Assembly (NCBI RefSeq): GCF_001693435.1
Contig: NZ_CM004509.1
Location: 1,550,001 to 1,614,000 of the forward strand
Length of the DNA: 64,000 nucleotides
Source: Gilliamella sp. wkB7
GTDB lineage: Bacteria > Pseudomonadota > Gammaproteobacteria > Enterobacterales > Orbaceae
Direction: 5' to 3'
Part shown: in pieces, positions 1 to 14,471 of the stretch
How positions within the stretch are numbered: position 1 is the stretch's first letter
Layout: every line of letters begins with the position of its first letter
Translations under genes and position numbers: made by a program
Notes under the pieces: generated by a model
Databases searched by the model: none
What the model was told of the DNA's origin: nothing
What the model saw: only the letters and a program-made list of their open reading frames with translations

Positions 1-288
1 TTCAGCTTGACCTTCTTTTGTCTGTTGATAAATTTCATCAGTATAAAAAAGAAGTCCTTGTCCATAAAAAAATTTTTTTAAGTAAGGAAATTGCTCTTCT
101 ATTGTTTTCAAAGGGTGATCTAATAATTGAGATTCCATATTTTCGGTTGAATAAATAATTTTAAGACCTTTGAAAATATCTATATTTTTTTCTATTAAAT
201 CATTAAAGCTTTTTGATAGGCTATGATTCACTATAGCTTCAAATGCTGAATTTAATTGCATTAATCGCTCTTGTTTGCTTTCTGTCAT
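1..288 (-). CDS. hypothetical protein, 5' part only (cut by window start)
   Basis: An open frame on the minus strand starts with ATG at 288 (MTESKQERLMQLNSAFEAIV...) and stays open for 96 codons to the window edge, so the protein is incomplete. The visible part is polar and predicted mostly helical, with no signal peptide, membrane segment or motif I recognise. It is divergent from the STAND NTPase gene at 466, with about 177 AT-rich bases between them that must hold both promoters. I do not recognise the family. Its place in an accessory segment makes a mobile or defence-related origin possible, but nothing in the residues shows this. Confidence 0.6.
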   Translation of the reverse strand, partial: MTESKQERLMQLNSAFEAIVNHSLSKSFNDLIEKNIDIFKGLKIIYSTENMESQLLDHPLKTIEEQFPYLKKFFYGQGLLFYTDEIYQQTKEGQAE

Positions 289-465: not shown

Positions 466-3400
466 ATGGTCACTGAAATGGCAACTATTAATCAAATTAA
501 GGCAAAATTACTTGAGCTTGAAGGTGGCGCATTTCAACGGCTTGGCGATCATTGGTTGCATAAGAGAGGGTATGAAAATTTAAATGCTATCGGAATGACT
601 CAGATAAGTAATAAAACAAAAACAGGCACTCCTGATACATTGATAATACAAAATAATGGTAAATATATTTTTGTTGAATACACAACACAACAACTAACTT
701 CCAGAAAAAAATTAGAAACAGATATAGATAAATGCCTTAATCCCCAGAAAACAGGAATTCCATTAGAAAATATTTCTGAAATTATTATATGTTATCTAGG
801 AACCTTAACTCCCGAAGATATTTATATATTGAACGAAAAATGTATTAAACAGAATATTATTCTTAGTTTATTTAATATTGATGCAATAGCATTAAGTATT
901 CAAAATAGTTACCCGGTATTGGCAAAAGAGTATCTTTCTTTACCGTTAGATACAGGGCAAATTCTTAGTATTGAGGAGTTCATAAAAAAATATAATTATA
1001 ATAAATTCTCAACTCCTATTATTGATTCACCTCTTTTTTTAGATGAATATTTTCACCAAGGAATAGAAGCTCTTCTTAACCAACAATTTTTACTTATATC
1101 CGGGGAAGCTGGTATAGGTAAAACACAATATAGCCTTAGCTTATTAAAAAAACTGCAAACGAGCTACCCAGACAAAAAAATATACTGTATTTTTAATAAA
1201 GGTGAAAGCTTTCTTGATGAGATAACAGCCTATTTTAGTGAGCCAGGAGACTATCTTATCTTTATTGATGATATAAATCGCCTTAATAGCAATCTGGATT
1301 ATTTACTCCATTATCTTGTCGAAAATGATGATAAACGCACATTTAAAATTATTGCAACAATCAGAAATTATGCTAAAACCTCATTTATTACTAAAATAAA
1401 ACAAATTACGACTTACCAAGAGATAACTTTAGCTAAACTGGATAAAGAACAGCTCTCCACATTGCTAAAAAAAATATTTAACATACATCATTTGGATTAT
1501 TTACAAAGAATTTGGGAAATAACTAAAGGTAACCCTCGTTTAGCTGTAATGGCCGCTAAAATTGCACTCAGAGAACAAAATCTTTCTGCTTTGTATAATA
1601 TAGCATCTCTTTACGACAGCTATTTTAGTCACTATCACCATGTTCAAATAATATTAGACAATAAAAAAACCATACTAACATCTGGGATAATTTCTCTTTT
1701 TAGAGTAATTGATTTTAAAAATGAACAACAAATACAAAGTATTCAACAGATATTTAACATTACTTTAGATGAGTTTCGAGATAATATTTCAATACTGACT
1801 CACAATGAATTGATTGACGTATTCGAAAATGAAATCATTAAAATAGCAGATCAAGTCTTAGCTACTTATTTACTTTATCATGCTATTTTTGTACAAAAGG
1901 TACTACCATTTCCTATTCTATTAGAATATTTTTCTAATCCTCAAAAAATAGGGTTATTAAATGATGCAATCGTTCCTATTATTAACGCCTTTGATCATAA
2001 AAGTATTCTTAATCAAATTCAGCCAGATATAAAATCTTATTACACAAAAATATTATCTAATCAGCACTCACAGGAAGATATTCTACTTTATTTAAACAAA
2101 TTTTGGTTTGCAATTCCTACTCAATGCTTGATGTTTATTAAAGATATTCTTGATAAACAAGAAAAAATTGACATAAATTGGCACACTGTCGACTTTGATT
2201 TTAATACCTCAAATGGTCAGGGAAATCTGATATTTTCATTGTTGAGCAAATTTAGACATTCCAATAAAGATGAATTACAACTTGCTATCAATTTATCATT
2301 AGATTTATTAGCGACATCAGATGATTTTATTAAACCTGCTGTATATGAGTTTACTAATACTCTTTCGTTTAAACACAATGATCATGAGATAGGATATGTT
2401 GTACAGAATATCATATTAGATAGTATATTATCTCGGACACATCAAGGTGATAACTACTTATATACCAAACTATTTTTTATTATTGCAGCCTATTATCTTA
2501 AGGCAGAATTTTCTGAATTTAATGCTGAAGGGAAAATGGTCAATATTATGCGCTTCCGCTTCCCTACAAATCAACCGCTAAAGGAAATAAGAGGAAAAAT
2601 ATTTAAACAATTAACAACATTAGTAAATCATGCAGACTATCAAGTGGAATCCTTCACATTACTAAGTGATTATATTGCTAATATGAAATTTAACGGTGGA
2701 AAAATAGTGCAACTGGATATGCCCTACATGTGGGACTTAATATCTTCATATTTTAACAAAAATAATATTGCCCATTGTTTATTAATAAAAAATTATCAGG
2801 ATCAATTACGTAACATGCACCTACTTTCTACGCAATTGATTGACAATATTCCTGCAATTGTTCAATTGTTGGCCGATTCTCACCAAGAAAGAGCCGAAAG
2901 AAAATTAAGTTATGAAGATTATCAAAAGTATCGTCGTAATAAAATTCAAAAATATACTGGTACAATAACAATAAATGAGCTCAATTATTTTCTACAGCAA
3001 TGCGAACACCTTAGTGTTGTCTCGAAACAGCATAAACAATATCAATTAAGGGAGATCATATCATCATGCTTATCAAATATGATAACAAGTTATCCTCACC
3101 ATTATCCGAGAATCATTTATACTTATCTTCAATATGATGAATTATTTTCTATCAATCCTTATTATATTATCACCACATTGTTTAAAATATGTGGTGTTAT
3201 AGAAACTAAAGATTTTATTGATACTCTTGAACATAAGAATAAAGAAGCTTGGCTTACCACTTATTTTGAACATTATCCTGCAGAAAATATTAATGAAAAA
3301 GTAGCTGCACAATTACTAGACCATATCGGTCAATTAACACAAATAACTGCAGTTCCCAATGATCTCAATCTGTTAGATAAATATCAACCATTTCATACAG

Positions 3401-4221
3401 ACTTGTATTTAATTATAACTAAATATTTATATGCTAAATCAAGACAAGATATGCGTTTCTTAGAACCCGTTGCTCGTTTATTTGATCAAAATAAGATTTA
3501 TAACCAATTATTAGTGTATTATAAAAATGACTCAGAGATTATTTATCAATGTTATCTTGCAATACTTAATTATAATTCCTATTTTGATGATGATGGGCAA
3601 CTATTAAAAAACTTATTAGAAAATAATCCCGCATTTTTTTATACAGTTCTTGATTCCATTTTACAAAAATCGACCCGATTATCATATGATACTAAAATAC
3701 CATGTTTGAAGTTCCTTTGGGATAAAGATAACTATATTCAGGATATTGAACAATATGCTTTATATATTTACCAAAAAGATCAATCCTATTTTGGTGGAAT
3801 ATTTCACAAATTATTTATTCATGATGAAAAAACTGATAATCTTGCAAAAAAACAACACAATTTTATAACACAAACGATCATAAATAACATTGATAATGAC
3901 GAATATATCTTATTTATTATAGGAGTACTTGATTACTTATCTGAAGATGAAAAATTAAATATTTTATTGGTATTATTAGAATATAATCAAAATATTAACT
4001 TATTTAAAAGAATACAGTTTAGTCCGCTATCTAGAAGTTGGTCAGGTAGTTTAGTACCGTATTTAGAAAAGGAAAAGCAATTCTTACTTAAAATATTACC
4101 TTATTTAAATAAAATAACGTTGCTTAATCACAAAGCCTATATTGAAGAATTAATTTCTCACAAAGAACAAGAAATTGAACGAGAGAAAAAAAGAGATTTT
4201 GTTGATATGGTTTATTATTAA
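466..4221 (+). CDS. STAND-type NTPase with N-terminal nuclease-like domain (candidate anti-phage protein)
   Basis: A 1251-residue single protein. Residues about 15-110 look like a PD-(D/E)xK nuclease fold: an early helix with GGAFQRL, then GTPD (D57) and a strand ending in E71-Y-T73, so the usual ExK lysine is replaced by T. Residues 213-220 (GEAGIGKT) are a Walker A motif, 263-269 (YLIFIDD) a Walker B, ATIRN near 298-302 a sensor-like arginine, and GNPRL at 356-360 matches the GxP motif of STAND ATPases. The remaining ~850 residues are Leu/Ile/Tyr-rich and helical, as expected for a repeat-type sensor. This architecture (effector-NTPase-sensor) is that of Avs/nSTAND defence proteins, where target sensing triggers the effector; the function here is inferred. 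ATG at 466 and ATG at 478 are both possible starts, neither with a clear Shine-Dalgarno; the similarity I recognise begins at MATINQ (478). A related broken gene follows 29 bases downstream. Confidence 0.7.
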   Translation: MVTEMATINQIKAKLLELEGGAFQRLGDHWLHKRGYENLNAIGMTQISNKTKTGTPDTLIIQNNGKYIFVEYTTQQLTSRKKLETDIDKCLNPQKTGIPLENISEIIICYLGTLTPEDIYILNEKCIKQNIILSLFNIDAIALSIQNSYPVLAKEYLSLPLDTGQILSIEEFIKKYNYNKFSTPIIDSPLFLDEYFHQGIEALLNQQFLLISGEAGIGKTQYSLSLLKKLQTSYPDKKIYCIFNKGESFLDEITAYFSEPGDYLIFIDDINRLNSNLDYLLHYLVENDDKRTFKIIATIRNYAKTSFITKIKQITTYQEITLAKLDKEQLSTLLKKIFNIHHLDYLQRIWEITKGNPRLAVMAAKIALREQNLSALYNIASLYDSYFSHYHHVQIILDNKKTILTSGIISLFRVIDFKNEQQIQSIQQIFNITLDEFRDNISILTHNELIDVFENEIIKIADQVLATYLLYHAIFVQKVLPFPILLEYFSNPQKIGLLNDAIVPIINAFDHKSILNQIQPDIKSYYTKILSNQHSQEDILLYLNKFWFAIPTQCLMFIKDILDKQEKIDINWHTVDFDFNTSNGQGNLIFSLLSKFRHSNKDELQLAINLSLDLLATSDDFIKPAVYEFTNTLSFKHNDHEIGYVVQNIILDSILSRTHQGDNYLYTKLFFIIAAYYLKAEFSEFNAEGKMVNIMRFRFPTNQPLKEIRGKIFKQLTTLVNHADYQVESFTLLSDYIANMKFNGGKIVQLDMPYMWDLISSYFNKNNIAHCLLIKNYQDQLRNMHLLSTQLIDNIPAIVQLLADSHQERAERKLSYEDYQKYRRNKIQKYTGTITINELNYFLQQCEHLSVVSKQHKQYQLREIISSCLSNMITSYPHHYPRIIYTYLQYDELFSINPYYIITTLFKICGVIETKDFIDTLEHKNKEAWLTTYFEHYPAENINEKVAAQLLDHIGQLTQITAVPNDLNLLDKYQPFHTDLYLIITKYLYAKSRQDMRFLEPVARLFDQNKIYNQLLVYYKNDSEIIYQCYLAILNYNSYFDDDGQLLKNLLENNPAFFYTVLDSILQKSTRLSYDTKIPCLKFLWDKDNYIQDIEQYALYIYQKDQSYFGGIFHKLFIHDEKTDNLAKKQHNFITQTIINNIDNDEYILFIIGVLDYLSEDEKLNILLVLLEYNQNINLFKRIQFSPLSRSWSGSLVPYLEKEKQFLLKILPYLNKITLLNHKAYIEELISHKEQEIEREKKRDFVDMVYY

Positions 4222-4250: not shown

Positions 4251-4832
4251 ATGTATTCTAAAACACAATCTTCAGAAGTTAACTACGAATTACATACATT
4301 AGGCTAGAAATCTTTTCAGCATTTATGTATTACAATTTTCTCTGAAATTATTAAATACCCTAATTTTTAGTTCCTATGATAGCGAAAGAAATGGTGCATT
4401 TAAAGTTGAGCGGAAAGTTGTCCAAAATGAAACAATGTCAGGTAGTTTAACTATTTAATGCAAATTTAGTTCAGAACCCCATAAGCAACTAAAACTATCA
4501 GATTTAAAAGATGAAATAGCTAAAGCAGAAAATTTAGTAAAAAAAGATTATGTGATAACTATATTATCAGCACCAATATGAGTTTGGCTGGAATAAATTG
4601 TGAGCCAATAGAGGCAAAATTTAGAGCTATACAGGGAATAAAACAATGCTACATTTATGGAAAAGAGACCTTATCAAGTTTAATAAGAGATAATCATAGA
4701 TTACGAATGTTAATTCCAAGAGTCTATGGGCTTGGCAACTTGGAACAAATTCTGGATGAAAGAGCTTAAAGCCAAGCAAAAGCAATACTCTCATCAATAG
4801 GTGATGACTTACAAAAATTTGTTATTACCTAG
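4251..4832 (+). pseudogene. remnant of a second STAND NTPase with Mrr-like nuclease N-terminus
   Basis: Reading across frames reconstructs the N-terminus of a nuclease-STAND protein. ATG at 4251 gives MYSKTQSSEVNYELHTLG then TAG where the family has Trp. After a frameshift the text continues ...SERNGAFKVERKVV...GSLTI, then TAA (4456-4458) where the family has Gln of the QCK catalytic motif (next codons read CKFSS). A second frameshift near 4548 leads into CDNYIISTNMSLAG, and from 4578 an open stretch with IPRVYGLGNLEQILDERA ends in TAA (4767-4769) in place of Tyr, then SQAKAILSSIGDDLQKFVIT and TAG at 4830. I recognise this as the region just before the Walker A of nSTAND3-type proteins with an Mrr-like domain. 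The NTPase and sensor parts are gone. With at least three stops and two shifts it is dead. Its start lies 29 bases after the intact STAND gene, so the two were probably co-transcribed. Confidence 0.7.
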
Positions 4833-4841
4833 TCATATAAA

Positions 4842-4997
4842 GTTTGTATCCGATTTTGCACTTGATATGGGATAATCTCAGTTGACATCTGTTGACAAAG
4901 AAAATTCTTTGAAAGGTAGTTTGGAAAAGGCTTTAGACATAAAAAAACCAGCTTTAAGCTGGTGTCTTTTTTGGAATTGGTGCCCGGACGCGAAATC
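4842..4997. repeat. left copy of tRNA-Phe-associated direct repeat (att-like)
   Basis: This stretch aligns without gaps to 14101-14256, at a constant offset of 9259, with about 9 to 10 mismatches by hand count. It contains the same terminator hairpin (4947-4963, ACCAGCTT-T-AAGCTGGT) and, at 4978-4997, the CCA end and last bases of tRNA-Phe on the minus strand (tggtgcccggacgcg). The similarity stops just inside the T arm, so it is not a tRNA gene. This is the layout left by site-specific integration at a tRNA 3' end, or by stacking of several islands at one site. A TTTGTATCC nonamer starts at 4843 and another lies at 5052. Confidence 0.8.
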
Positions 4998-5283
4998 AAA
5001 ATAAAACTATAATTTATTGATATTAAATAACTTTAATTCAAATAAAAACTATTTGTATCCACTTTTATATCCATAAGTCAACTTGCTTGAATTTAAATAT
5101 TTTTAACGGCTAAATATACAAATGAATCACCATCTTTTCAAAGTGTTATTATATAAATAAAAGTATTAAATCAATTAATGTCTAAAATAATATAATAAGT
5201 AAAAAAACTCTAATTTTGAAATGATTTAATATTTCTATCCTGCTCTAACGAGCTAGGATAAAAATATTAATTATATTAGATAG

Positions 5284-5936
5284 TTAGAAGAAATATTTAA
5301 ATCTTACGCGCGCACCATAACGATTATCAGAGCCACCGCCTTGATTCTCATCACGAGATAAATGTGACCAGTAAGAACCTAGATAGATATTAAAGTTATC
5401 CATATCCATTACATTGGAAATTAAATATGATGCATTAACAGTATGAATCTTATATTTACCTTTACCTAAACTATCTGCACTGTCTAAATTATCGGTTGAA
5501 GTCGTTGGTTTGTATTGTTTAATATCATTCGCTGCAAAAATATAACCTAAACCAATTCGTTGCCATACTGCATTAACGCCTGCTGAAAAATCTTTTTCTT
5601 GATTAGCATCAAGGTAAGCTGTGCTCACGTTAACCACTAGATTATCTGGTGATTGATTCCAATTGCCCGCGGTATTAAAACACATTGTTGCTCCATAGTC
5701 CCATCTAAACCGATGAGTACGCGACCATTAATGTCCCAACGTTTATCACGATTAGCATTACTATCTGCCGTTGTTTTTAATGAAGTTAAACTATGTTTTT
5801 TACTTGCTGCATCGATATTGAATTCGACATCACCATATAATTTCAAATCACCTTGGCTAGTTTGCTACTCAATTTGTGCAAACGTAGGAAAACTGGATAA
5901 ACAGCATAAAGCGACAAAAAGTTTAGAATATTCCAT
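5284..5936 (-). pseudogene. broken outer-membrane porin-like gene
   Basis: The minus strand starts at ATG 5936 with a signal-peptide-like sequence (MEYSKLFVALCCLSSFPT), then loses frame: a missing T in the ACGTTGCACAA region shifts the expected TFAQIE, and an in-frame TAG follows at about 5866-5868. The mature part (LKLYGDVEFNIDAASKK, 5846 downwards) loses frame again near 5690 (GLDG then, in another frame, DYGATMCFNTAGNWNQ), and the rest runs to a terminal beta-strand ending RVRFKYFF at 5284. The C-terminal phenylalanine and alternating strands fit a small monomeric porin (OmpG/KdgM-like); the exact family is uncertain. It lies at the left end of the mannosidase island and may once have let the glycoside through the outer membrane. 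At least three lesions make a functional product unlikely. Confidence 0.65.
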
Positions 5937-6040
5937 TACTCGATCTCCGATTAAAGTATTATGTAATCACATAAATAAACTACAATTTTTTCAAATTACG
6001 ATTAAATATAATGTGTGTACATTTAAAAAATAATGTTGAT

Positions 6041-6901
6041 TTAAGAAAGTAATTTTTTGGCCAGTAAAAAATTACCAATTGTTGCACTACCATTATTTTC
6101 TATAGATGGTGTTTTTATATATTCATCCAAATTTTCAATTGTAATATAATTATTCATGAGCAGTTTAAAGTGTGCTTTAACTCTACCTAACATATGATCT
6201 TGATACATTACCCCGCCACCAAGAATAATCATTTTAGGTCGTATTATTAATGTTGCATTGAAAATTGCTTGAGCTATATAAAAGGCTTGCACATCCCATA
6301 CATATGAATCACTCGTTATATTTTCACCCTTAATACCTGTTCTAGCTTCAATACTTGGTCCTGATGCCAATCCCTCTAAGCAATCATGGTGAAATGGGCA
6401 AACTCCATTAAAGTCCTGATCTAACATATGTTTTTTTACCATTTGATGTCCCATTTCTAGGTGCCCTACGCCACCTATAAATTGGCCATTTTGAATAACA
6501 CTACCCCCAACTCCCGTCCCTATTGTGTAATAAATCAAATTATCACATGAATTTAAATACATTTCTCCGTAAGCACTTGAATTAACATCTGTTGTAAAAA
6601 ATACAGGAATATCTAATTCTTTTTGAATAGGAGAAACTAAATCAACATTAGACCATCCTTGTTTAGGTGTGTTTAAAATATATCCGTATTTATCACTATT
6701 CTTATTATTATCAATAGGACCGAAACTGCCGATTGCAATTGATGAAACTCTATTCACACTGAAAAAGTGATTAACTTGTTTAATTGTTTGTTCATATGTT
6801 GTGGTTGGGATAACTTCACTCGTAATTATCTCATTTTTCTCATTTCCTACTGCGCAGAGGAATTTCGTTCCACCAGCCTCAATACTACCAAATAAATTCA
6901 T
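6041..6901 (-). CDS. ROK-family sugar kinase (fructokinase/mannokinase-like)
   Basis: A 286-residue ROK kinase. The N-terminus carries the phosphate-binding pattern GSIEAGGTK, the middle has TIGTGVGGS, and a zinc site follows with GHLEMGHQ, CPFHHDC and LEGLASGPS. That zinc cluster is typical of the fructokinase-type ROK branch (ScrK/GmuE), which phosphorylates fructose and often mannose at the 6-hydroxyl with ATP. It is last in the minus-strand run after the PTS and the GH38 mannosidase, so the inferred role is phosphorylating free mannose or another released hexose for glycolysis. The 127-base gap to the mannosidase contains no obvious hairpin that would separate it from the operon. Length is normal for the family (about 290). 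Confidence 0.8.
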   Translation of the reverse strand: MNLFGSIEAGGTKFLCAVGNEKNEIITSEVIPTTTYEQTIKQVNHFFSVNRVSSIAIGSFGPIDNNKNSDKYGYILNTPKQGWSNVDLVSPIQKELDIPVFFTTDVNSSAYGEMYLNSCDNLIYYTIGTGVGGSVIQNGQFIGGVGHLEMGHQMVKKHMLDQDFNGVCPFHHDCLEGLASGPSIEARTGIKGENITSDSYVWDVQAFYIAQAIFNATLIIRPKMIILGGGVMYQDHMLGRVKAHFKLLMNNYITIENLDEYIKTPSIENNGSATIGNFLLAKKLLS

Positions 6902-7028
6902 TTTTGAACCTCTTCAAAATAAATTCAATATCATAAATAAACTTATTATGATTCATATTATTTTAGATAATATATCTATAAATAATTTAGCCAACATCAT
7001 CCATATTGGCTAAATTTTATTCGCTTTA

Positions 7029-9722
7029 TTAATTAGTTAATTCATTTTCAAATTCGATATAAATCGTAACAAACTTAGCGTGTTCAATACCTTTAATATC
7101 GATACTATTATTAAATATATCTATATTATCTAAGCAATGTTCTTGAAGATTAACTTTTTCAGCTAGTTTAATTTTATGCTTAAACTTAATTGTTGAATGA
7201 CTAATCTGTTTATACTTACCATTATAAAATCTTAAAATATAACCCGGTCTCTCTTCAGCTTTCTTTATAACACTTAAAATTAAATCTCCGCTGGTTTCCA
7301 TCATACTAAAAGTGACAGGAAGTGTTTTATCTACATCTGATAATGTAAATATTAATCTTGAGTTTAAAAAATCTGCTATTTGGTAAACTTGAACTGGTGA
7401 TAATATTTGTTTTGCTAACTCCGCAACATTTGAAGAGTTAAATGATTCAGGATAATAAAAAACCGAAAACGAATATGTCATATATTTATGACACTGAGCA
7501 TCAGGAGTTTTAATAGTTGTTTCACCAGAAGCTCGTCCTGGTCTGTACATTAAATTCTCTTTTCCCATAAAACCATATGTTCTAAATATAGTTAATCGTA
7601 TAATACTGTAATCATCACCAATGATTTCATATTCTCGAACCCCTTTTGGTACGACTGCAACACCTTTATTTTCATCAGATAAAGTTACAAAAGTTTGGCA
7701 AGTTTCGATTGCTATAGGTTGCTCACTCCAAGAGTTTTTATTTTGCTCCCATAAGCTCATTTCTTTTTCAAATAGAACCGGTCTTTTTATTACACCAAAT
7801 TGATGATCTGCCGTTGAAAATTTAGATGCAATACTTGTATCAAAAGATACACATACTCGATGGCTGTCAACTAATGTATTATCTACTTGTAATGAAAAAT
7901 CAATTACAGGAGAATCTTTTTTAATGGTTAAATTTAATGTGATTGGTAATAAAGTTGTACATTTTCTTTGTGATCTTTCTTGTAGATTTTTAGGTACTAA
8001 CATTTCAAAATCTATACAAACCATACTAACGATATCTGATTCTTTTATCGTTATCGTAGGTGAAAAATCTGTAGAATAAACAACTAAATCGTTAACCGGA
8101 GGTGAATAATTAAAGGAATCCCCATCATCACCATTATCTTCTATAATAGCTTGATTTTTATAGGTTAAATTTGATTTTTTATCTAAAATGTCTAAAGAAC
8201 CATTCTTATTAACAGTAATTGTATAGTAAGTATTTTCAATTACATTAGTAGATTTTTGTTTGATTTTTTTATGTGTACTGCCATTCAAATCAAGCGTTAG
8301 TTGGTTATAACCTAAGCCAGGTAGATTAGATGATTCTAACGCAATTTTTGCTTTATATACTTTCTTTGGAATATATATTTTTTTACTTGGGTTAAGAATA
8401 TTTCCTTGATTAAGAACATATTGTGTCTGATCTACTAATTCTAAAATTGTATAGGGAATCTCCATACCTTGCTGATCTAATATTCTAAAATCTTCTTGTG
8501 GTAAATAAACATCTGCTTCAATAATTCCACTTCTAGATTTATTAAAAGTATTAAATACAGTTAGAGTGATTTCTTTACCAGAAAAATTATCAATTCTCAT
8601 CGATATATTTCTCATTGTAAGCTCTATCAAGTTCTCCGAAATATCCCTAATTTGTTTGTAGCGCATATAGATATCTTCATTAGCAGAATCAGATACACAC
8701 GAACCTATCGAATCATGCGCAGCATTTTCAAACATCAATTTCCATATTTCACGAACTGTTTCTACTGGATATTCGAAACCTAATGACATAGAAATACTTA
8801 AAATAGGTTCCATTATATTAACAAGATAGTTTTGAGTTTGTGTATTTAACTGTTTTAAATCTGATCTCGAAGAAAAAATAGTTTTATGAATTCTCATTAA
8901 TTTTCCATTAATTAACTCACCACTAATTTCTTCTAAGTCCGGGTTTTCATTTTTTATAGCATTTATATAGTTTTCTATAGTAGATATTTCTAATTCAAAC
9001 TCATCTTTATATAATTCATTCATTCTACCTATTAATTCTAATAGATTTTCTCTTGGTGGGGCTTGATCAAATCCATTAGGGAAAAAAACATGATTAGTTG
9101 AACTTCTTGCCCATGTTTTTCTAAAAGGATCTTGTTTCAAATAAGTTGCTAGTTCTTGCGAATCCTCAGGAATAGCTCCGCCAATGTAATAACCACTAGG
9201 AATTTGGAATACATTTACAATTGAACCATCTTCTCCTTTCCATCTATACTCTGTTTTTTTGACTTCATCATCACTAACTCCGCGCCAAAACATTGTATCT
9301 TTAATGCCGAATTCTAAGTAAATTTGAGGCATGCTTGACGATTGACCAAATGAATCTGGAACATAACCAACTGGCATATATCCACCAAATTCACTACAAA
9401 TTCTTATACCATATTGCATATTTCTGATAATACTTTCACCAGATATCACTAACTGATCTGTTTGAGTATACCAAGGACCTATAATTAACTTACCTTTTTT
9501 TACTAGTGATTCTATTCTATGTTTATCTTGCGGTCTCCATTTGAGATAATCATCTAAAAGAGATGCTTGACCATCTAATAAAAATGAATCATATCCATTT
9601 TCATCTTCTAATAATTCAATGACTCTTTTAAAATCATGCATCAAATATACTTTAGAGCGACTAGTTGTGAAATACCACTCTCTATCCCAATGAGTATGCG
9701 GAACTACATGTACTTTTTTCAT
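7029..9722 (-). CDS. mngB: GH38 alpha-mannosidase (mannosylglycerate hydrolase MngB-like)
   Basis: An 897-residue cytoplasmic glycoside hydrolase of family 38, with no signal peptide. The zinc motif HTHWDREW is at residues 9-16 and the nucleophile region VPDSFGQ at 121-127 (D123). MWxxAHDSIGSC-like residues appear later (FENAAHDSIGSC), another GH38 metal-binding segment, and a long beta-rich C-terminus completes the family. In E. coli, MngB cleaves 6-phospho-mannosyl-glycerate, made by the PTS MngA, to mannose-6-phosphate and glycerate. Here a fructose-type PTS sits directly upstream in the same direction (25-base gap), so a phospho-mannoside substrate is likely; the aglycone cannot be read from sequence. 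E. coli MngB is about 877 residues, so length agrees. The gene is inside the tRNA-Phe island. Confidence 0.85.
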   Translation of the reverse strand: MKKVHVVPHTHWDREWYFTTSRSKVYLMHDFKRVIELLEDENGYDSFLLDGQASLLDDYLKWRPQDKHRIESLVKKGKLIIGPWYTQTDQLVISGESIIRNMQYGIRICSEFGGYMPVGYVPDSFGQSSSMPQIYLEFGIKDTMFWRGVSDDEVKKTEYRWKGEDGSIVNVFQIPSGYYIGGAIPEDSQELATYLKQDPFRKTWARSSTNHVFFPNGFDQAPPRENLLELIGRMNELYKDEFELEISTIENYINAIKNENPDLEEISGELINGKLMRIHKTIFSSRSDLKQLNTQTQNYLVNIMEPILSISMSLGFEYPVETVREIWKLMFENAAHDSIGSCVSDSANEDIYMRYKQIRDISENLIELTMRNISMRIDNFSGKEITLTVFNTFNKSRSGIIEADVYLPQEDFRILDQQGMEIPYTILELVDQTQYVLNQGNILNPSKKIYIPKKVYKAKIALESSNLPGLGYNQLTLDLNGSTHKKIKQKSTNVIENTYYTITVNKNGSLDILDKKSNLTYKNQAIIEDNGDDGDSFNYSPPVNDLVVYSTDFSPTITIKESDIVSMVCIDFEMLVPKNLQERSQRKCTTLLPITLNLTIKKDSPVIDFSLQVDNTLVDSHRVCVSFDTSIASKFSTADHQFGVIKRPVLFEKEMSLWEQNKNSWSEQPIAIETCQTFVTLSDENKGVAVVPKGVREYEIIGDDYSIIRLTIFRTYGFMGKENLMYRPGRASGETTIKTPDAQCHKYMTYSFSVFYYPESFNSSNVAELAKQILSPVQVYQIADFLNSRLIFTLSDVDKTLPVTFSMMETSGDLILSVIKKAEERPGYILRFYNGKYKQISHSTIKFKHKIKLAEKVNLQEHCLDNIDIFNNSIDIKGIEHAKFVTIYIEFENELTN

Positions 9723-9746
9723 TATCTTGGCCTATTTAAATTAAAT

Positions 9747-10844
9747 TTAATTTTCAATGCTGATCTCAATATCATCAATATCTATTAATTCTTGCTCATC
9801 ATCTCTTTTAAAGTTAACAAACAATGGCGCAAAAAAACCGATGAAAGCAGCACCAACAAATAGACCGACTAAATATGCCCAGCCATTTCCGACAGTAAAG
9901 AAACCATAAACACCGCCAACAGGTGGCATCTTGTCAAACATCCCTAATAAAACACCTAAACCTGATGCTATAGATCCACCAATAATATTAATTGGTACTA
10001 ACTTTAATGGCTGTACTAAAGTAAATGGTATTGCACCTTCGGTAATACCAATAAATCCCATCACAAAATTATTCCGGCCTGCATCTAATAATTCATCATT
10101 AAATTTTTTCTTATGGAATAACGTTGCAAAAGCATATCCCATAGGAACAGCACAAATAGCAATATTAACCATGATTGCTGGCATATAAATCTGTTCAATT
10201 AATAACACATTTCCTGCCATCCATGCAGCTTTATTAATTGGGCCACCTAAATCAGAAGCGATCATTCCCCCAAGAATAATAGCTAATAATAATTGGCTGA
10301 CATCATTCGCTATCATACTTCTGATCCAATTAACTAATCCTGTGTTAATCAAAGCTAGTGGTTCAGATAAAACAGCTCCCATAATGATAGCTACAGATAA
10401 AGTAGCAATTAAAGGTAGAATAACCAGTGGCATTACGCCTGAAAATGATGCTGGTAGATGAATTTTATTTTTTGCCCATTTAACTAAATAGCCAGCTAAA
10501 AATCCAGCAATCACCGCACCTAAAAATCCAGCATTAGTTGAACTAGCAACAGCTCCACCAATAAATCCAGCGCCAATTGCAGCCTTATCACCAATAGAAT
10601 ATGCAATAAAACCAGCTAATACTGTATTTATTAATGCTATACCTACCCAACCCACTTGTTCTATCAAATAAAGAGAGTGCTCAAAACCAGAACTATCTTT
10701 AAAAATATCTAGACTAGTAATACCCATAGATAATGCTATCATTTTGGGAATAGCAATTACTAAAGAAGATCCGATAATTAATGGTAGAACAAAACTAATG
10801 CCACTCATCAAATGCCCTTTCAACTCAAACATTATTTTTTTCAT
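9747..10844 (-). CDS. PTS fructose-family EIIC permease
   Basis: A 365-residue integral membrane protein with repeated hydrophobic helices and glycine-rich stretches (GAGFIGGAVASSTNAGFLG, SDLGGPINKAAWMAG, GFIGITEGAIPF). The GITEGAIPF segment is a hallmark of fructose-type EIIC transporters. It carries sugar across the inner membrane while EIIB phosphorylates it. In E. coli MngA the A, B and C domains are one polypeptide; here they are three genes in the order A-B-C. The gene is 20 bases downstream of EIIB and is followed closely by the mannosidase, supporting import of an alpha-mannoside. The acidic C-terminal tail (DDEQELIDIDDIEISIEN) lies after the last helix. Confidence 0.88.
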   Translation of the reverse strand: MKKIMFELKGHLMSGISFVLPLIIGSSLVIAIPKMIALSMGITSLDIFKDSSGFEHSLYLIEQVGWVGIALINTVLAGFIAYSIGDKAAIGAGFIGGAVASSTNAGFLGAVIAGFLAGYLVKWAKNKIHLPASFSGVMPLVILPLIATLSVAIIMGAVLSEPLALINTGLVNWIRSMIANDVSQLLLAIILGGMIASDLGGPINKAAWMAGNVLLIEQIYMPAIMVNIAICAVPMGYAFATLFHKKKFNDELLDAGRNNFVMGFIGITEGAIPFTLVQPLKLVPINIIGGSIASGLGVLLGMFDKMPPVGGVYGFFTVGNGWAYLVGLFVGAAFIGFFAPLFVNFKRDDEQELIDIDDIEISIEN

Positions 10845-10864
10845 ATTAATTTTCTCTTATTTAG

Positions 10865-11182
10865 TTATTTTCTACTTTCTATGATATTCACACATTTTTT
10901 TAAAACTGCTTCAGGAGCCTTAATACAAGTGGCAATACTAACTTTTAATTGAGGCTTATCTTTAAATCTATCCATATCTATTACTTTTTGATCTGTTGCT
11001 AATAAAACAAAATCAGCTTCATCAACTTCAGCTTGTGAAATTTTATTAACTTGTCCTAAAGATCCTTGTTGCTCAATTTTTACATCATAACCTAATTTTT
11101 TACCTGCATTCTCTAATGCTTTAGCAGCCATAGGAGTGTGCGCTAGTCCTGCTGGGCAGGCTGAAATACCAACAATTTTCAT
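10865..11182 (-). CDS. PTS fructose-family EIIB component
   Basis: A 105-residue soluble EIIB protein. The N-terminus GISACPAGLAHT carries the phospho-accepting cysteine (C9) in the arrangement typical of fructose-type IIB, followed by MAAKALENAGKKLGYDVKIE. It takes phosphate from EIIA and passes it to the sugar bound by EIIC. Its start overlaps the end of the EIIA gene by four bases (11179-11182, ATGA type), so the two are translationally coupled. Full length for a stand-alone IIB domain. Confidence 0.9.
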   Translation of the reverse strand: MKIVGISACPAGLAHTPMAAKALENAGKKLGYDVKIEQQGSLGQVNKISQAEVDEADFVLLATDQKVIDMDRFKDKPQLKVSIATCIKAPEAVLKKCVNIIESRK

Positions 11183-11640
11183 ACTAATACCTCTCTTGCC
11201 ATTTCCTTATTGATTAGTGATATAATTTTATTTATATCTGTTGAAGCTTTTATTTCATTTTTAAAATCATCTTCCATTAAAGCTGTAGCTAGTTTACTTA
11301 TCATCATAATATGGGTAGTACCAGCCTCATTTTTAGGCACGAATAAAGCAAAAACATATTGAACATTACTCTCATCAAATGTTTCCCATTCTATCGGTTT
11401 AGCTAATTTTGCAAAAAAAACAGTTGGAGTAATAACAGCGTCATCTTTTGCATGAGGAATTGCAAACCCATCAATCAATCCTGTCGATGATTCTTTTTCT
11501 CTATCGATAAATGCTTCCATAGTTTTTTTAATATCATTGACGTAATTATGCTTAAAAGCATTACTTGATAAAAAATCAAATAACTCATCTCTACTTTCTA
11601 CGTTTAAATTTAAAAAAATATTATTTTCTGAAAGATTCAT
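11179..11640 (-). CDS. PTS fructose-family EIIA component
   Basis: A 153-residue EIIA of the fructose/mannitol family (PTS_EIIA_2 type). The active histidine is H63 in GFAIPHAKDD, preceded by REKESSTGLIDG, the usual pattern. It accepts phosphate from HPr and hands it to the EIIB encoded next. It is the first gene of the island's minus-strand operon and is divergent from the PRD regulator at 11793 across a 152-base AT-rich gap that must contain the controlled promoter. The split A-B-C arrangement differs from the fused MngA of E. coli. Confidence 0.9.
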   Translation of the reverse strand: MNLSENNIFLNLNVESRDELFDFLSSNAFKHNYVNDIKKTMEAFIDREKESSTGLIDGFAIPHAKDDAVITPTVFFAKLAKPIEWETFDESNVQYVFALFVPKNEAGTTHIMMISKLATALMEDDFKNEIKASTDINKIISLINKEMAREVLV

Positions 11641-11792
11641 TACGTTAGTACCTTTAATTAAATAAAATGGATTAATTAATATAATAAGAGATGTTATAAA
11701 AAAGCATATCCATACATTTTCATTTTATTTTGGAAAATTAATGTACTATCTTTTTTTCTAGAAGTAATATCATATTGATAGTGATTTTTTAA

Positions 11793-13739
11793 ATGAGGCC
11801 TCTTATTACTATGAGTAAATTTTCGTACCAACGGTTAGATGATTTATTTGATTTTTTTTTACTTAAAAAAGAGCCCATAATAATTAAAGATATTGCGTCC
11901 ACAATTAATGTGTCTGAACGAACTATTCGCACAGACATTTCTAACCTAAATGATTATTTAATTAATAAAAATGCCAAAATAAAATTAATAAGACAAAAAG
12001 GTTATATCTTAGATTGTGAAGATGAAAAAAAAATCATCGACTGGTGGGGTAATTTTAATAAAACTGAAGGCTATAGTTTATTAGGCTCTTTAAAAGAACG
12101 TCAGAATTATTTATTCGCTTTATTATTGAATGAGTTAAAATATTATTCTGTTTATGAATTAATGGAACATTTATGTATAAGTAAAAATACATTATATATG
12201 TACTTGAAAAATATACGTAAAACATTATCAAACTATAATTTAAAACTAATTAATAATACAAATACTGGATTTAAAGTTATTGGCACAGAATACGATAAAC
12301 GAAAAGCTATATTAGATTTATTTTTGATTAACGATTTACAATCTTATTTGGTTGGATTCACGGACTTAGAAAAGTTGTTTTTGACAAATATTGATTTAGA
12401 TTTATTAAAAACATTAGAATCAAAACACTTATATTCTCTACAATTATTAGACTCTGATTTTTATCATAAAAATATAATATCGACTATTGCATTGGCAATA
12501 GCTAGAGTAAAAGAAGGATTAACAATTAATGAAATATCCATTGAAGTTCCAAAGTTAATGGATCATGCATTAGATGCAATATATTTATTTCTTAAAGAAA
12601 TAGAAAACTCATTCTCAATCACATTACCCATTAATGAAATCAACTATTTTATTCTAACTTTATCCATTAATGTACCTAGATTAATCAAAAACCCTAAAAA
12701 TCACCCATCTGAATCGTCGATCATCGTTGATGAATTATTAACATCAATATATGAGACATCTAATCTTAATTGGACTAAAGATAAGATCTTATTTGAAGAT
12801 TTAGTTAACCATATTGAGAATTTTATTAAAATTAGTTCAATAGATAAAGAAAGAAAAAATCCAATACTCAGTACAATAATAAATTCTTTCCCATTTGCCT
12901 ATAGTTTAAGTTTAACCCATCTAGGCGTAATTGGTAAAAAATACAATATCTTTTTTTCTGAAGATGAAGTTGGATATATAGCACTACACATAGCTGGCGC
13001 TATTGAAAGACATAAAGCAAAAACTCAACAGCTTAATGTGATTATCGTCTGTGGTGGTGGCTTTGCAATGAGTAAAATTATAGAATCAAAAATAAATAAA
13101 AAATTCCCAAATAAATTTAATATAAAAAAAACATACTCCTATGCTGAATTTCAATTATCAAATATAAGTGACATAGATCTAACAATTACCACTCTTCCAT
13201 TTACTCAAGAAAATACTCCCACTGTTTACATTGATATGTCAAATATAGATAAAGCAATTGATGATTTAAAATATTATCTAACCGATGATCAAATTAATAA
13301 TAACGTTATGCAACTTTTTAATCCTGAAAATTTTTATTACTTTGACACTGATAAATTATCTAAAAAAGACTTATTAGTAAAAATGACAGTTGATCTAGAA
13401 AAACAAAATATTGTCTCAGAGGATTTTGTGTCTAGTGTGTTAGAAAGAGAGAGCTTACAAACAACATTGATTAATGATGTCATTGCTATACCTCATTCTA
13501 TGACAATGATTGCAAACAGATCAAGAGTATCAGTTGCTATATTTCCGAATGGGATACAATGGGAGAAAGATAAAAAATGTAATTTTATATTTTTACTTGC
13601 AATATCGAAAACTGATAATGAAATTACAGATAATTTATATGATCTAATATTAAATTTAATTGATGATAAAGCCATGACAAAACAATTATTAAAAGCTTAT
13701 ACATTCCATGAATTTAAAAATTTACTAAGTATTTTATAG
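11793..13739 (+). CDS. PTS-controlled transcriptional activator (HTH, PRD, EIIB-like, EIIA-like)
   Basis: A 648-residue multi-domain regulator of the BglG/MtlR/LicR type. Residues about 8-70 form an HTH_11 domain (IASTINVSERTIRTDI), about 110-145 a second HTH (LMEHLCISKNTLYMYL), then PRD domains, the second with the phosphorylatable His in GYIALHIAGAIERH (near 398). An EIIB-like domain follows (VIIVCGGGFAMSKIIE) and a C-terminal EIIA-like domain (VIAIPHSM, near 568). Such proteins sense PTS flux through phosphorylation of PRD histidines by HPr and the cognate EIIB. Divergent placement indicates that it controls the EIIA-EIIB-EIIC-mannosidase-kinase operon. This replaces the GntR repressor MngR of the E. 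coli system. MRPLITM and the internal MSKFSYQ (11811) are alternative starts. Confidence 0.88.
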   Translation: MRPLITMSKFSYQRLDDLFDFFLLKKEPIIIKDIASTINVSERTIRTDISNLNDYLINKNAKIKLIRQKGYILDCEDEKKIIDWWGNFNKTEGYSLLGSLKERQNYLFALLLNELKYYSVYELMEHLCISKNTLYMYLKNIRKTLSNYNLKLINNTNTGFKVIGTEYDKRKAILDLFLINDLQSYLVGFTDLEKLFLTNIDLDLLKTLESKHLYSLQLLDSDFYHKNIISTIALAIARVKEGLTINEISIEVPKLMDHALDAIYLFLKEIENSFSITLPINEINYFILTLSINVPRLIKNPKNHPSESSIIVDELLTSIYETSNLNWTKDKILFEDLVNHIENFIKISSIDKERKNPILSTIINSFPFAYSLSLTHLGVIGKKYNIFFSEDEVGYIALHIAGAIERHKAKTQQLNVIIVCGGGFAMSKIIESKINKKFPNKFNIKKTYSYAEFQLSNISDIDLTITTLPFTQENTPTVYIDMSNIDKAIDDLKYYLTDDQINNNVMQLFNPENFYYFDTDKLSKKDLLVKMTVDLEKQNIVSEDFVSSVLERESLQTTLINDVIAIPHSMTMIANRSRVSVAIFPNGIQWEKDKKCNFIFLLAISKTDNEITDNLYDLILNLIDDKAMTKQLLKAYTFHEFKNLLSIL

Positions 13740-13750
13740 GTTAATTATAA

Positions 13751-13978
13751 TTCATTGTAAATGGACTTTATTGTAACCATCAACATTTTATTACGATGGG
13801 TAAACACGTTGGACTAGATGAAAATCTGGCCAGAGGAATGTTTATTGAGTTTAAATCGCTCATGCCTAGTGTTATTTCACAGATCAAATCTCAATTACCA
13901 AACCATCACGCTTTACATACCAGTGATGCAATTTTTAATGGCCTTGCAAAACAAGCTGAAAAGATCCCTGATTTTTAA
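13751..13978 (+). pseudogene. fragment resembling the C-terminus of a HipA-like kinase
   Basis: An open stretch without a proper start: the frame is open from 13751 and reads ...NHQHFITMGKHVGLDENLARGMFIEFKSLMPSV... to TAA at 13976-13978; the first ATG (13796) is internal. The pattern of a His/Asn-rich lead, GKHxGL and a last helix ending QAEKIPDF resembles the C-terminal end of HipA-type toxin kinases as I remember them. The catalytic part and any hipB partner are absent, so it is a relic at the right end of the island. Only about 75 codons remain, and the assignment is tentative. Confidence 0.4.
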
Positions 13979-14020
13979 AAGAAGTTTTCTATATTAAGAG
14001 ATACTTTATTTTATCTATTC

Positions 14021-14049
14021 CCGTATACGGTATAGATAATAAACTTTAA
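14021..14049. promoter_or_regulatory. imperfect palindrome beside the HipA-like remnant
   Basis: TTATCTAT and ATAGATAA flank an inner perfect palindrome CCGTATACGG (14031-14040); spacing differs by one base between the two sides. There is no T-run, so it is not a standard terminator. It could be an old operator left with the toxin remnant, or an integration-related site, as it lies about 50 bases from the TTTGTATCC pair at 14090 and 14102. Function unknown. Confidence 0.35.
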
Positions 14050-14100
14050 CCTATTGTTATAAAATAATTTATCATGAATCAATAGGATATTTGTATCCGG

Positions 14101-14256
14101 GTTTGTATCCGATTTTGCACTTGATATGGGGTAATCTCAGTTGACGTCGGTGGACAAAGAAAATCCTTTGAAAGGTAGTTTTGAAAAAACTTTAGACATA
14201 AAAAAACCAGCTTTAAGCTGGTGCCTTTTTTGGAATTGGTGCCCGGACGCGGAATC
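14101..14256. repeat. right copy of tRNA-Phe-associated direct repeat (att-like)
   Basis: Ungapped match to 4842-4997 at an offset of 9259. It begins gtttgtatccgattttgcac, includes the tRNA-Phe terminator hairpin (14206-14222 region, ACCAGCTT-T-AAGCTGGT) and runs into the intact tRNA-Phe 3' end. Two TTTGTATCC nonamers, 12 bases apart, occur at 14090-14098 and 14102-14110. The two copies bracket the mannosidase cassette and mark its borders. Confidence 0.8.
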
Positions 14257-14312
14257 GAACCACGGACACGGGGATTTTCAATCCCCTGCTCTACCGACTG
14301 AGCTATCCGGGC
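14237..14312 (-). tRNA. tRNA-Phe (anticodon GAA)
   Basis: The reverse complement reads GCCCGGATAGCTCAGTCGGT at the 5' end, then an anticodon loop TTGAAAA with GAA anticodon, and a 3' end TCCGGGCA followed by encoded CCA (14237-14239). It folds as a normal 76-base cloverleaf: acceptor GCCCGGA/TCCGGGC, D arm AGCTCAG, anticodon stem GGGGA/TCCCC, and T arm GTTCGATTC with a G-C closing pair that differs slightly from E. coli pheV. A terminator hairpin lies just downstream (lower coordinates). The 3' end is partly duplicated at 4978-4997, so this tRNA was used as an integration site. Confidence 0.97.
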
Positions 14313-14471
14313 AACAATGGAGGTGTATTAAACACGATTCTCGGTTATCCGTCAATCCCTTTTATAAGATATTTTAAAAAATACATACTGATTGGTTGAA
14401 ATTTAACTAATTATCACTATATTAATAATTTAGTTAGAATAATATCACTCTATATTTAGAGGAATTTTTAT

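What the first reader, a model, noticed from the sequence alone, without database searches (positions are those of the whole stretch)
466..4221. Intact STAND NTPase with degenerate nuclease motif: candidate anti-phage protein
The 1251-residue protein combines a PD-(D/E)xK-like N-terminus (D57, E71), Walker A (213-220), Walker B (263-269), a GNPRL STAND motif (356-360) and an ~850-residue helical sensor-like region. The layout is that of Avs/nSTAND defence proteins. The usual catalytic Lys is Thr here (EYT), so the effector may be a binding module or may use a relocated Lys. It lies next to a tRNA-Phe integration hotspot and a dead relative.
Basis: partly seen in the sequence, partly recalled or inferred. 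Interest (0 to 1): 0.8.

Follow-up and report, generated by a model that had tools for sequence, protein, structure and literature searches.

The report
Widespread nuclease-type STAND immune protein
This intact gene from a probable bee-gut bacterium looks like a one-gene anti-phage alarm that switches on a nuclease; its supposedly broken nuclease site is a conserved variant shared by a large, little-studied protein family.

Summary
The ORF at 466-4221 is real and intact. It belongs to a large family (453 database proteins at E <= 1e-3) with a fixed layout of about 1250 residues: PD-(D/E)XK-like N-domain, nSTAND3-type NTPase, helical C-terminal solenoid. Foldseek of a residue 1-500 model ranks Avs4 and Avs3 first, so "Avs-like" holds. 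"Degenerate nuclease" does not: position 73 is T or S in 116 of 116 aligned sequences, where D57, E71, K82, D86 and C90 never vary and K89 is 113 of 116. The strand lysine appears replaced by a helix signature, K82-x3-D86-x2-K89, spaced like that of arenavirus cap-snatching endonucleases; homology to these is not supported. The gene lies in a 6.5-kb segment between two tRNA-Phe 3'-end repeats, one decayed. The tRNA-Phe site of other genomes of the genus holds DRT3, Tmn-like, type III methylase and type I restriction genes. No second family member was found in this genome; the debris downstream is unrelated. One member lies on a prophage-like contig. Anti-phage function is likely but untested.

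The parts
466..4221 (+). STAND NTPase gene (1251 aa; likely start at 478, 1247 aa)
   Evidence: ORF; family alignment
478..960 (+). Effector domain, residues 5-165: PD-(D/E)XK-like fold with D57, E71, T73, K82, D86, K89, C90
   Evidence: AF2 secondary structure; conservation
1048..1575 (+). nSTAND3-type NTPase, residues 195-370: Walker A 213-220, Walker B 263-269, R300, GNPR 355-358
1576..1875 (+). Mostly helical region after the NTPase with a beta hairpin at 450-460 (winged-helix-like by inference), residues 371-470, including D462-Q463
   Evidence: AF2; D462 and Q463 in 116 of 116
1876..4218 (+). C-terminal helical solenoid, residues 471-1251, putative sensor; W929, Y1030, W1085, S1195 in 116 of 116, K1241 115, K1242 114
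   Evidence: AF2 of residues 441-1251
4366..4829 (+). Debris of an unrelated gene in broken frames
4931..4997 (+). tRNA-Phe 3'-end plus terminator repeat (att-like), right border of the segment holding the STAND gene; 97% over 67 bp
14237..14312 (-). tRNA-Phe gene, the presumed integration site
1..288 (-). First 96 codons of a divergent 422-aa ORF (whole in L003:18021-19289) between the left att-like repeat and the STAND gene; no Pfam family over cut-off, no PADLOC match; partnership not supported

Best explanation
A stand-alone anti-phage STAND (NLR-like) immune protein. The C-terminal helical solenoid is thought to bind a phage-made trigger. ATP-dependent oligomerisation through the nSTAND3 NTPase then brings the N-terminal PD-(D/E)XK-type domains together, and they cut nucleic acid and stop the infection by abortive infection. 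The nuclease site is a conserved variant: metal binding by D57 and E71, with the usual strand lysine replaced by K82-x3-D86-x2-K89 on the following helix. Shown here: layout, predicted folds, family-wide conservation, mobile context. Inferred: sensing, oligomerisation, metal binding, nuclease activity, phage protection.
Against: No phage or biochemical data. No PADLOC family calls it: only mad8 (E 3.4e-4) and JetC (0.052). No relative among solved-structure sequences at E <= 0.001 for the protein, its profile or the N-domain profile. TM-scores of the Avs matches are 0.36 or less, and the shared NTPase drives much of the match; the N-domain was not folded or searched alone. 2 of 47 divergent sequences have Ala at E71. 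The sensor half matches only generic helical solenoids in the rows shown. PADLOC scanning of neighbours against a control was not decisive. No member in 50,697 phage records.
Confidence: 0.75

Rival explanations
1. The N-domain keeps the PD-(D/E)XK fold but is a nucleic-acid or metal binding module without cleavage; defence works by binding or by another activity.
For: The canonical Lys is T or S in 116 of 116; 2 of 47 divergent N-domains have Ala at E71.
Against: D57, K82, D86 and C90 are the same in 116 of 116 and 47 of 47, E71 in 116 of 116 and 45 of 47; such a charged set is more typical of a catalytic centre (inference).
Confidence: 0.15
2. A STAND regulator or self-recognition protein unrelated to phage (stress response, conjugation or plasmid control).
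For: 13 plasmid records, all Leptospira, hold a relative, 6 of them over at least 80% of the query; no phenotype is known to me.
Against: Hotspot company of restriction, DRT3 and GmrSD genes; a member on a prophage-like contig; top structural neighbours Avs4 and Avs3.
Confidence: 0.15
3. The gene works only with the divergent 422-aa ORF upstream as a two-gene system.
For: Divergent, 177 bp apart, inside the same segment between tRNA-Phe repeats.
Against: Of the other 43 genomes, 2 have a weak or short match to the 422-aa ORF (G042 E 4.9e-12; G019 E 5.2e-6, 44 residues), and G007, the other carrier of the STAND gene, has none. No recurrent partner across loci.
Confidence: 0.07

Closest known systems
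Avs4 and Avs3 (AVAST; structures 8dgf, 8dgc)
   Same: N-terminal nuclease, STAND NTPase, helical C-terminal sensor (layout of Avs recalled); top Foldseek hits of residues 1-500
   Different: Shorter (1251 against 1534-2028 residues in the chains listed); no PADLOC Avs hit at E <= 1; strand Lys absent; no Avs chain in the rows shown for the sensor half
Avs5 (SIR2-STAND; 9jap, 9nc9)
   Same: nSTAND3 NTPase (PF20720 is named for Avs5 in PMC12931631, passages); highest VIA-align Z, over residues 162-365
   Different: Effector is SIR2 in Avs5, PD-(D/E)XK-like here
Arenavirus L-protein cap-snatching endonuclease (PF15518)
   Same: PD, E and a K-x3-D-x2-K set with the same K-D-K spacing as the motif printed in PMC2940758 (passages)
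   Different: No significant homology: PF15518 below cut-off throughout, and in the STAND gene of only 1 of 23 genomes tested; 10 instead of 12 residues between E and K
Animal NLRs (NLRC4, NOD2, NLRP3)
   Different: Different effector, and helical solenoid instead of leucine-rich repeats (recalled)

Membership tests
STAND NTPases (nSTAND3, PF20720) | P-loop NTPase profile over cut-off | tested here: met
   27.7 bits, cut-off 27.2; PF20720 is precomputed for 108 of the 120 homologues listed, my count
STAND NTPases (nSTAND3, PF20720) | Walker A, Walker B DD, GNPR-type motif conserved | tested here: met
   K219, D268, D269, G355, N356, R358 in 116 of 116; position 357 is P 81, A 33, other 2
PD-(D/E)XK nucleases | alpha-beta-beta-alpha-beta core order | tested here: met
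   AF2 model, pLDDT 79-94 by ten-residue blocks over 61-150; order read from DSSP, the N-domain was not folded or searched alone
PD-(D/E)XK nucleases | PD ... (D/E)xK with Lys two residues after the acid | tested here: not met
   Position 73 is T (105) or S (11) in 116; Lys candidates K82 and K89 lie on the next helix
PD-(D/E)XK nucleases | Metal-dependent phosphodiester cleavage | not testable with these tools
   needs protein
Avs1-5 | Sequence match to an Avs profile | tested here: not met
   PADLOC-DB 2.0.0 of 2023: only mad8 and JetC, weak, at E <= 1
Avs1-5 | Effector - STAND - helical sensor layout | tested here: met
Avs1-5 | Sensor fold like Avs sensors | tested here: inconclusive
   Only generic helical solenoids among rows shown
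Avs1-5 | Phage-protein recognition and ligand-driven oligomerisation | not testable with these tools
   needs experiment
Arenavirus-type endonuclease (PF15518) | Profile match over cut-off | tested here: not met
   11 of 47 N-domains match weakly, best E 1.8e-4, the first 16.9 bits against a cut-off of 27; no match over cut-off in 23 genomes
Arenavirus-type endonuclease (PF15518) | P-D-X(11,13)-E-X12-K-X3-D-X2-K | tested here: inconclusive
   P56-D57-X13-E71-X10-K82-X3-D86-X2-K89: all but the 12-residue spacer fit (motif from PMC2940758)

The most novel reading that the evidence does not exclude
A large family of bacterial NLR-like proteins, found here in eleven phyla, uses a nuclease whose active site is built like that of viral cap-snatching endonucleases: catalytic lysine moved from the strand to a K-x3-D-x2-K helix. 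It would act as an RNA- or DNA-cutting death effector, either convergent with or distantly ancestral to the viral enzymes.
Probability: 0.25. Interest if true: 0.75.

Novelty: new variant of a known kind. Interest (0 to 1): 0.52.

Why it matters
It puts a large family with no PADLOC model into a known mechanistic frame and turns an apparent defect (EYT) into a testable alternative nuclease chemistry in STAND immunity. It also marks the tRNA-Phe site of this genus (Gilliamella by inference) as a defence hotspot, useful for finding further systems in bee-gut symbionts.

Tried and rejected
Dead relative: one family match in the own genome at E <= 0.001, the gene itself. The debris pieces 4366-4455, 4459-4578 and 4578-4766 match none of 121 family proteins and no Pfam family over its cut-off. 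The 63-aa piece has no other match in 44 genomes of the family, but 19 plasmid records hold one; the best lies in a 760-aa hypothetical protein directly after AbiEi/AbiEii genes on a Bradyrhizobium plasmid. The debris DNA has no match in E. coli genomes.

Homology to viral cap-snatching nucleases: PF15518 rang weakly in 11 of 47 N-domains, the other 17 families in 1 or 2 each. In a six-frame test of 23 family-bearing genomes it rang in 8 at E <= 1, in the STAND gene itself in only 1 (G068), never over the cut-off, and other proteins scored as well or better; it also rang in 2 of 14 control genomes. I therefore dropped homology and keep only the motif likeness. The N-domain profile found no PD-(D/E)XK nuclease among the 9 PDB sequences at E <= 10. 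Foldseek of the 1-500 model against viral models: the named rows among the 50 shown are mostly AAA-type ATPases, none named a cap-snatching endonuclease; the NTPase fills that list, so it is no test of the N-domain.

Neighbour enrichment: 150 of 155 ORFs within 6 kb of the family gene in 20 of 79 loci, against 148 of 195 ORFs from 20 regions elsewhere on the same contigs; 137 against 98 PADLOC families at 1e-10. The models are redundant, families not proteins are counted, and the control also held strong defence hits (cyclase, GajB, RTasHel), so this is not decisive. Of 10 large neighbours then looked at singly, 4 matched at 1e-10 (two pieces of a split Avs4-like gene, an AAA protein with HEC-04, NsnB and AriA matches, and a TnsB-like protein) and 6 did not.

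Conserved partner: in 81 loci (79 plus L003 and L004) the two broadest neighbour groups reach 8 loci each; the one member scanned from the second is a MoxR-type AAA ATPase, the first was not scanned; the next broad groups are mostly Okeania or Nostoc synteny. Of 67 members, 13 have a same-strand ORF of 60 aa or more starting under 60 bp downstream and 18 one ending under 60 bp upstream.

The genome-contig scan with the single protein found no relative; with the alignment, 79 loci. The phage collection gave no match.

Papers: Gilliamella with anti-phage, 0 papers; 'nSTAND3 domain-containing NTPase', 0 papers; Gilliamella, phage and defense system, 6 papers, listing only; cap-snatching with defence terms, 240 papers holding 3 of 5 terms, 8 listed, none opened. 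Only a held open-licence library was searched, so the family may be in print elsewhere.

Full report
What was checked. The ORF at 466-4221 is open and has the motifs described, with GNPRL one residue earlier than stated. Homologues usually begin at M5, so the true start is probably ATG 478. The genome is one contig of 2.9 Mb.

Family. 453 proteins at E <= 1e-3 among 7,993 scored candidates; 120 were listed, of which 115 are longer than 1,200 residues. An alignment profile fetched 79 loci from species genomes. Of 65 rows in a tree, 63 carried a phylum, 11 phyla in all, many from MAGs; the phylum labels need 14 changes where 10 is the least, so there is mostly phylum-wise clustering with signs of some exchange, and the tool warns that long branches and misbinned contigs can mimic it. 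Among 44 genomes of the own bacterial family 2 have the gene, at different sites: the second copy, 42% identical, lies beside tRNA-Leu and tRNA-Gly genes. In at least six of the 79 loci (L040, L048, L049, L069, L074, L079) the gene is split. 13 Leptospira plasmid records hold relatives, 6 of them over at least 80% of the query; none of 50,697 phage records does. Of 74 pattern matches in the viral contigs 1 is a relative; that contig holds ORFs that read by eye as terminase, portal, protease and capsid genes, so it looks like a prophage (no family search was made on these).

Effector. The model of residues 1-500 has mean pLDDT 84 and shows helices 3-16 and 20-33, strands 58-61 and 67-73, helix 80-90, strand 103-110, helix 116-127 and strand 132-136, the PD-(D/E)XK order (recalled knowledge). 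D57 precedes the first of these strands, E71 is in the second, and K82, D86 and K89 lie on the helix that follows, on one face by i, i+4, i+7 spacing (inference; no coordinates were at hand). In 116 full-length sequences D57, E71, K82, D86 and C90 never vary, K89 is 113, and position 73 is T 105 / S 11. In 47 N-domains taken from the genome loci, more divergent ones included, D57, K82, D86 and C90 are 47 of 47, K89 45, E71 45 with two Ala, T73 46 with one Ala. So Thr or Ser is the rule of the family, not decay in this copy.

Likeness to viral endonucleases. PMC2940758 (passages read) gives the arenavirus motif E-X38-P-D-X(11,13)-E-X12-K-X3-D-X2-K and reports that alanine mutants of K115, D119 and K122 lose much of the activity. 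PMC4909276 (passages read) superposes Lassa K115 on the catalytic lysine of influenza; it also reports that conservative changes at K115, K122 and D119 did not much change transcription, so the role of each residue is open even there. Here it is P56-D57-X13-E71-X10-K82-X3-D86-X2-K89. E17 stands 38 residues before P56 but is conserved in only 102 of 116 and 29 of 47; D28 (111 of 116, 43 of 47) is the better candidate for an upstream acid. The Pfam model of the viral domain rang weakly in 11 of 47 but failed a whole-genome specificity test. The safe statement is a shared arrangement of motif residues, origin unknown.

Surroundings. The 3' end of tRNA-Phe with its terminator occurs at window 14181-14262 and 4931-4997 and, decayed, at genome 1548437-1548478 and 1542678-1542719. 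The STAND gene, the divergent 422-aa ORF and some debris lie between the second and third copies; a GmrSD gene (Pfam GmrSD_N 1e-31) lies between the third and fourth. In the nearest relative G003 the flanking stretch 4842-14314 is 98% identical but other genes follow in place of the STAND segment. The tRNA-Phe region is found in 43 of 44 genomes; by my count in 10 of the 44, own included, a second short copy lies on the same contig within about 21 kb. Of 13 regions fetched, 6 showed two exact core copies inside the stretch. From four of the 13 I picked five large ORFs by eye, and all five matched defence families: Drt3a and Drt3b (L014), Tmn (L021), type III methyltransferase (L016), type I restriction enzyme (L013). 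The first three regions are bounded by two copies; L013 showed one copy only. This shows defence cargo but is not a rate, and the other nine regions were not scanned.

Company elsewhere. In a Hydrococcus locus a split Avs4-like gene lies directly downstream; a Nostoc locus has ORFs of like size and place. On a Leptospira plasmid a second protein with a STAND-like NTPase (E 8e-6 to the family) and a canonical-looking nuclease motif by eye follows. No partner gene is general.

Conclusion. A stand-alone, Avs-like STAND defence protein with a conserved variant nuclease site is the best reading. Phage protection, trigger, oligomerisation and cleavage are untested. PMC12724215 (passages) summarises the published Avs model that this follows: C-terminal sensing, ATP-dependent oligomerisation, toxic N-terminal effector.

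Noticed in passing
L003:12149-14029 (-), own genome left of the window: 626-aa GmrSD-type (GmrSD_N, GmrSD_C) protein in the neighbouring segment between tRNA-Phe repeats; PADLOC HEC-06 1.3e-39.
   Followed up: partly
L014:3930-7351 (G008): DRT3a/DRT3b reverse-transcriptase pair, complete-looking, at the tRNA-Phe hotspot.
   Followed up: partly
L021:8918-13393 (G015): 1491-aa YobI-ATPase protein with a Tmn match at the tRNA-Phe hotspot.
   Followed up: partly
window 4366-4829: Decayed gene related to a 760-aa hypothetical protein that follows AbiEi/AbiEii on a Bradyrhizobium plasmid; possibly a third gene of an AbiE-like operon.
   Followed up: partly
L003:4359-10403 (-): 1213-aa protein with a VasX N-terminal match, beside three ORFs (281, 281 and 178 aa) that look near-identical by eye, perhaps tandem immunity genes.
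   Followed up: no
window 5284-5685 (-): C-terminal third only of a Porin_8 (RafY-like) porin; a similarly short copy is in the nearest relative (L012:10932-11321).
   Followed up: no
L127:8881-12675 (Leptospira interrogans plasmid): Second, divergent STAND-like protein directly after a family member, with a canonical-looking nuclease motif by eye.
   Followed up: partly
L125:1787-5506: Family member on a prophage-like viral contig beside XRE- and ORF6N-like ORFs (read by eye).
   Followed up: partly
L076 and L090 N-domains: Two Bacillota MAG members have Ala at the E71 position (VAYT) with D57, K82 and D86 kept.
   Followed up: no
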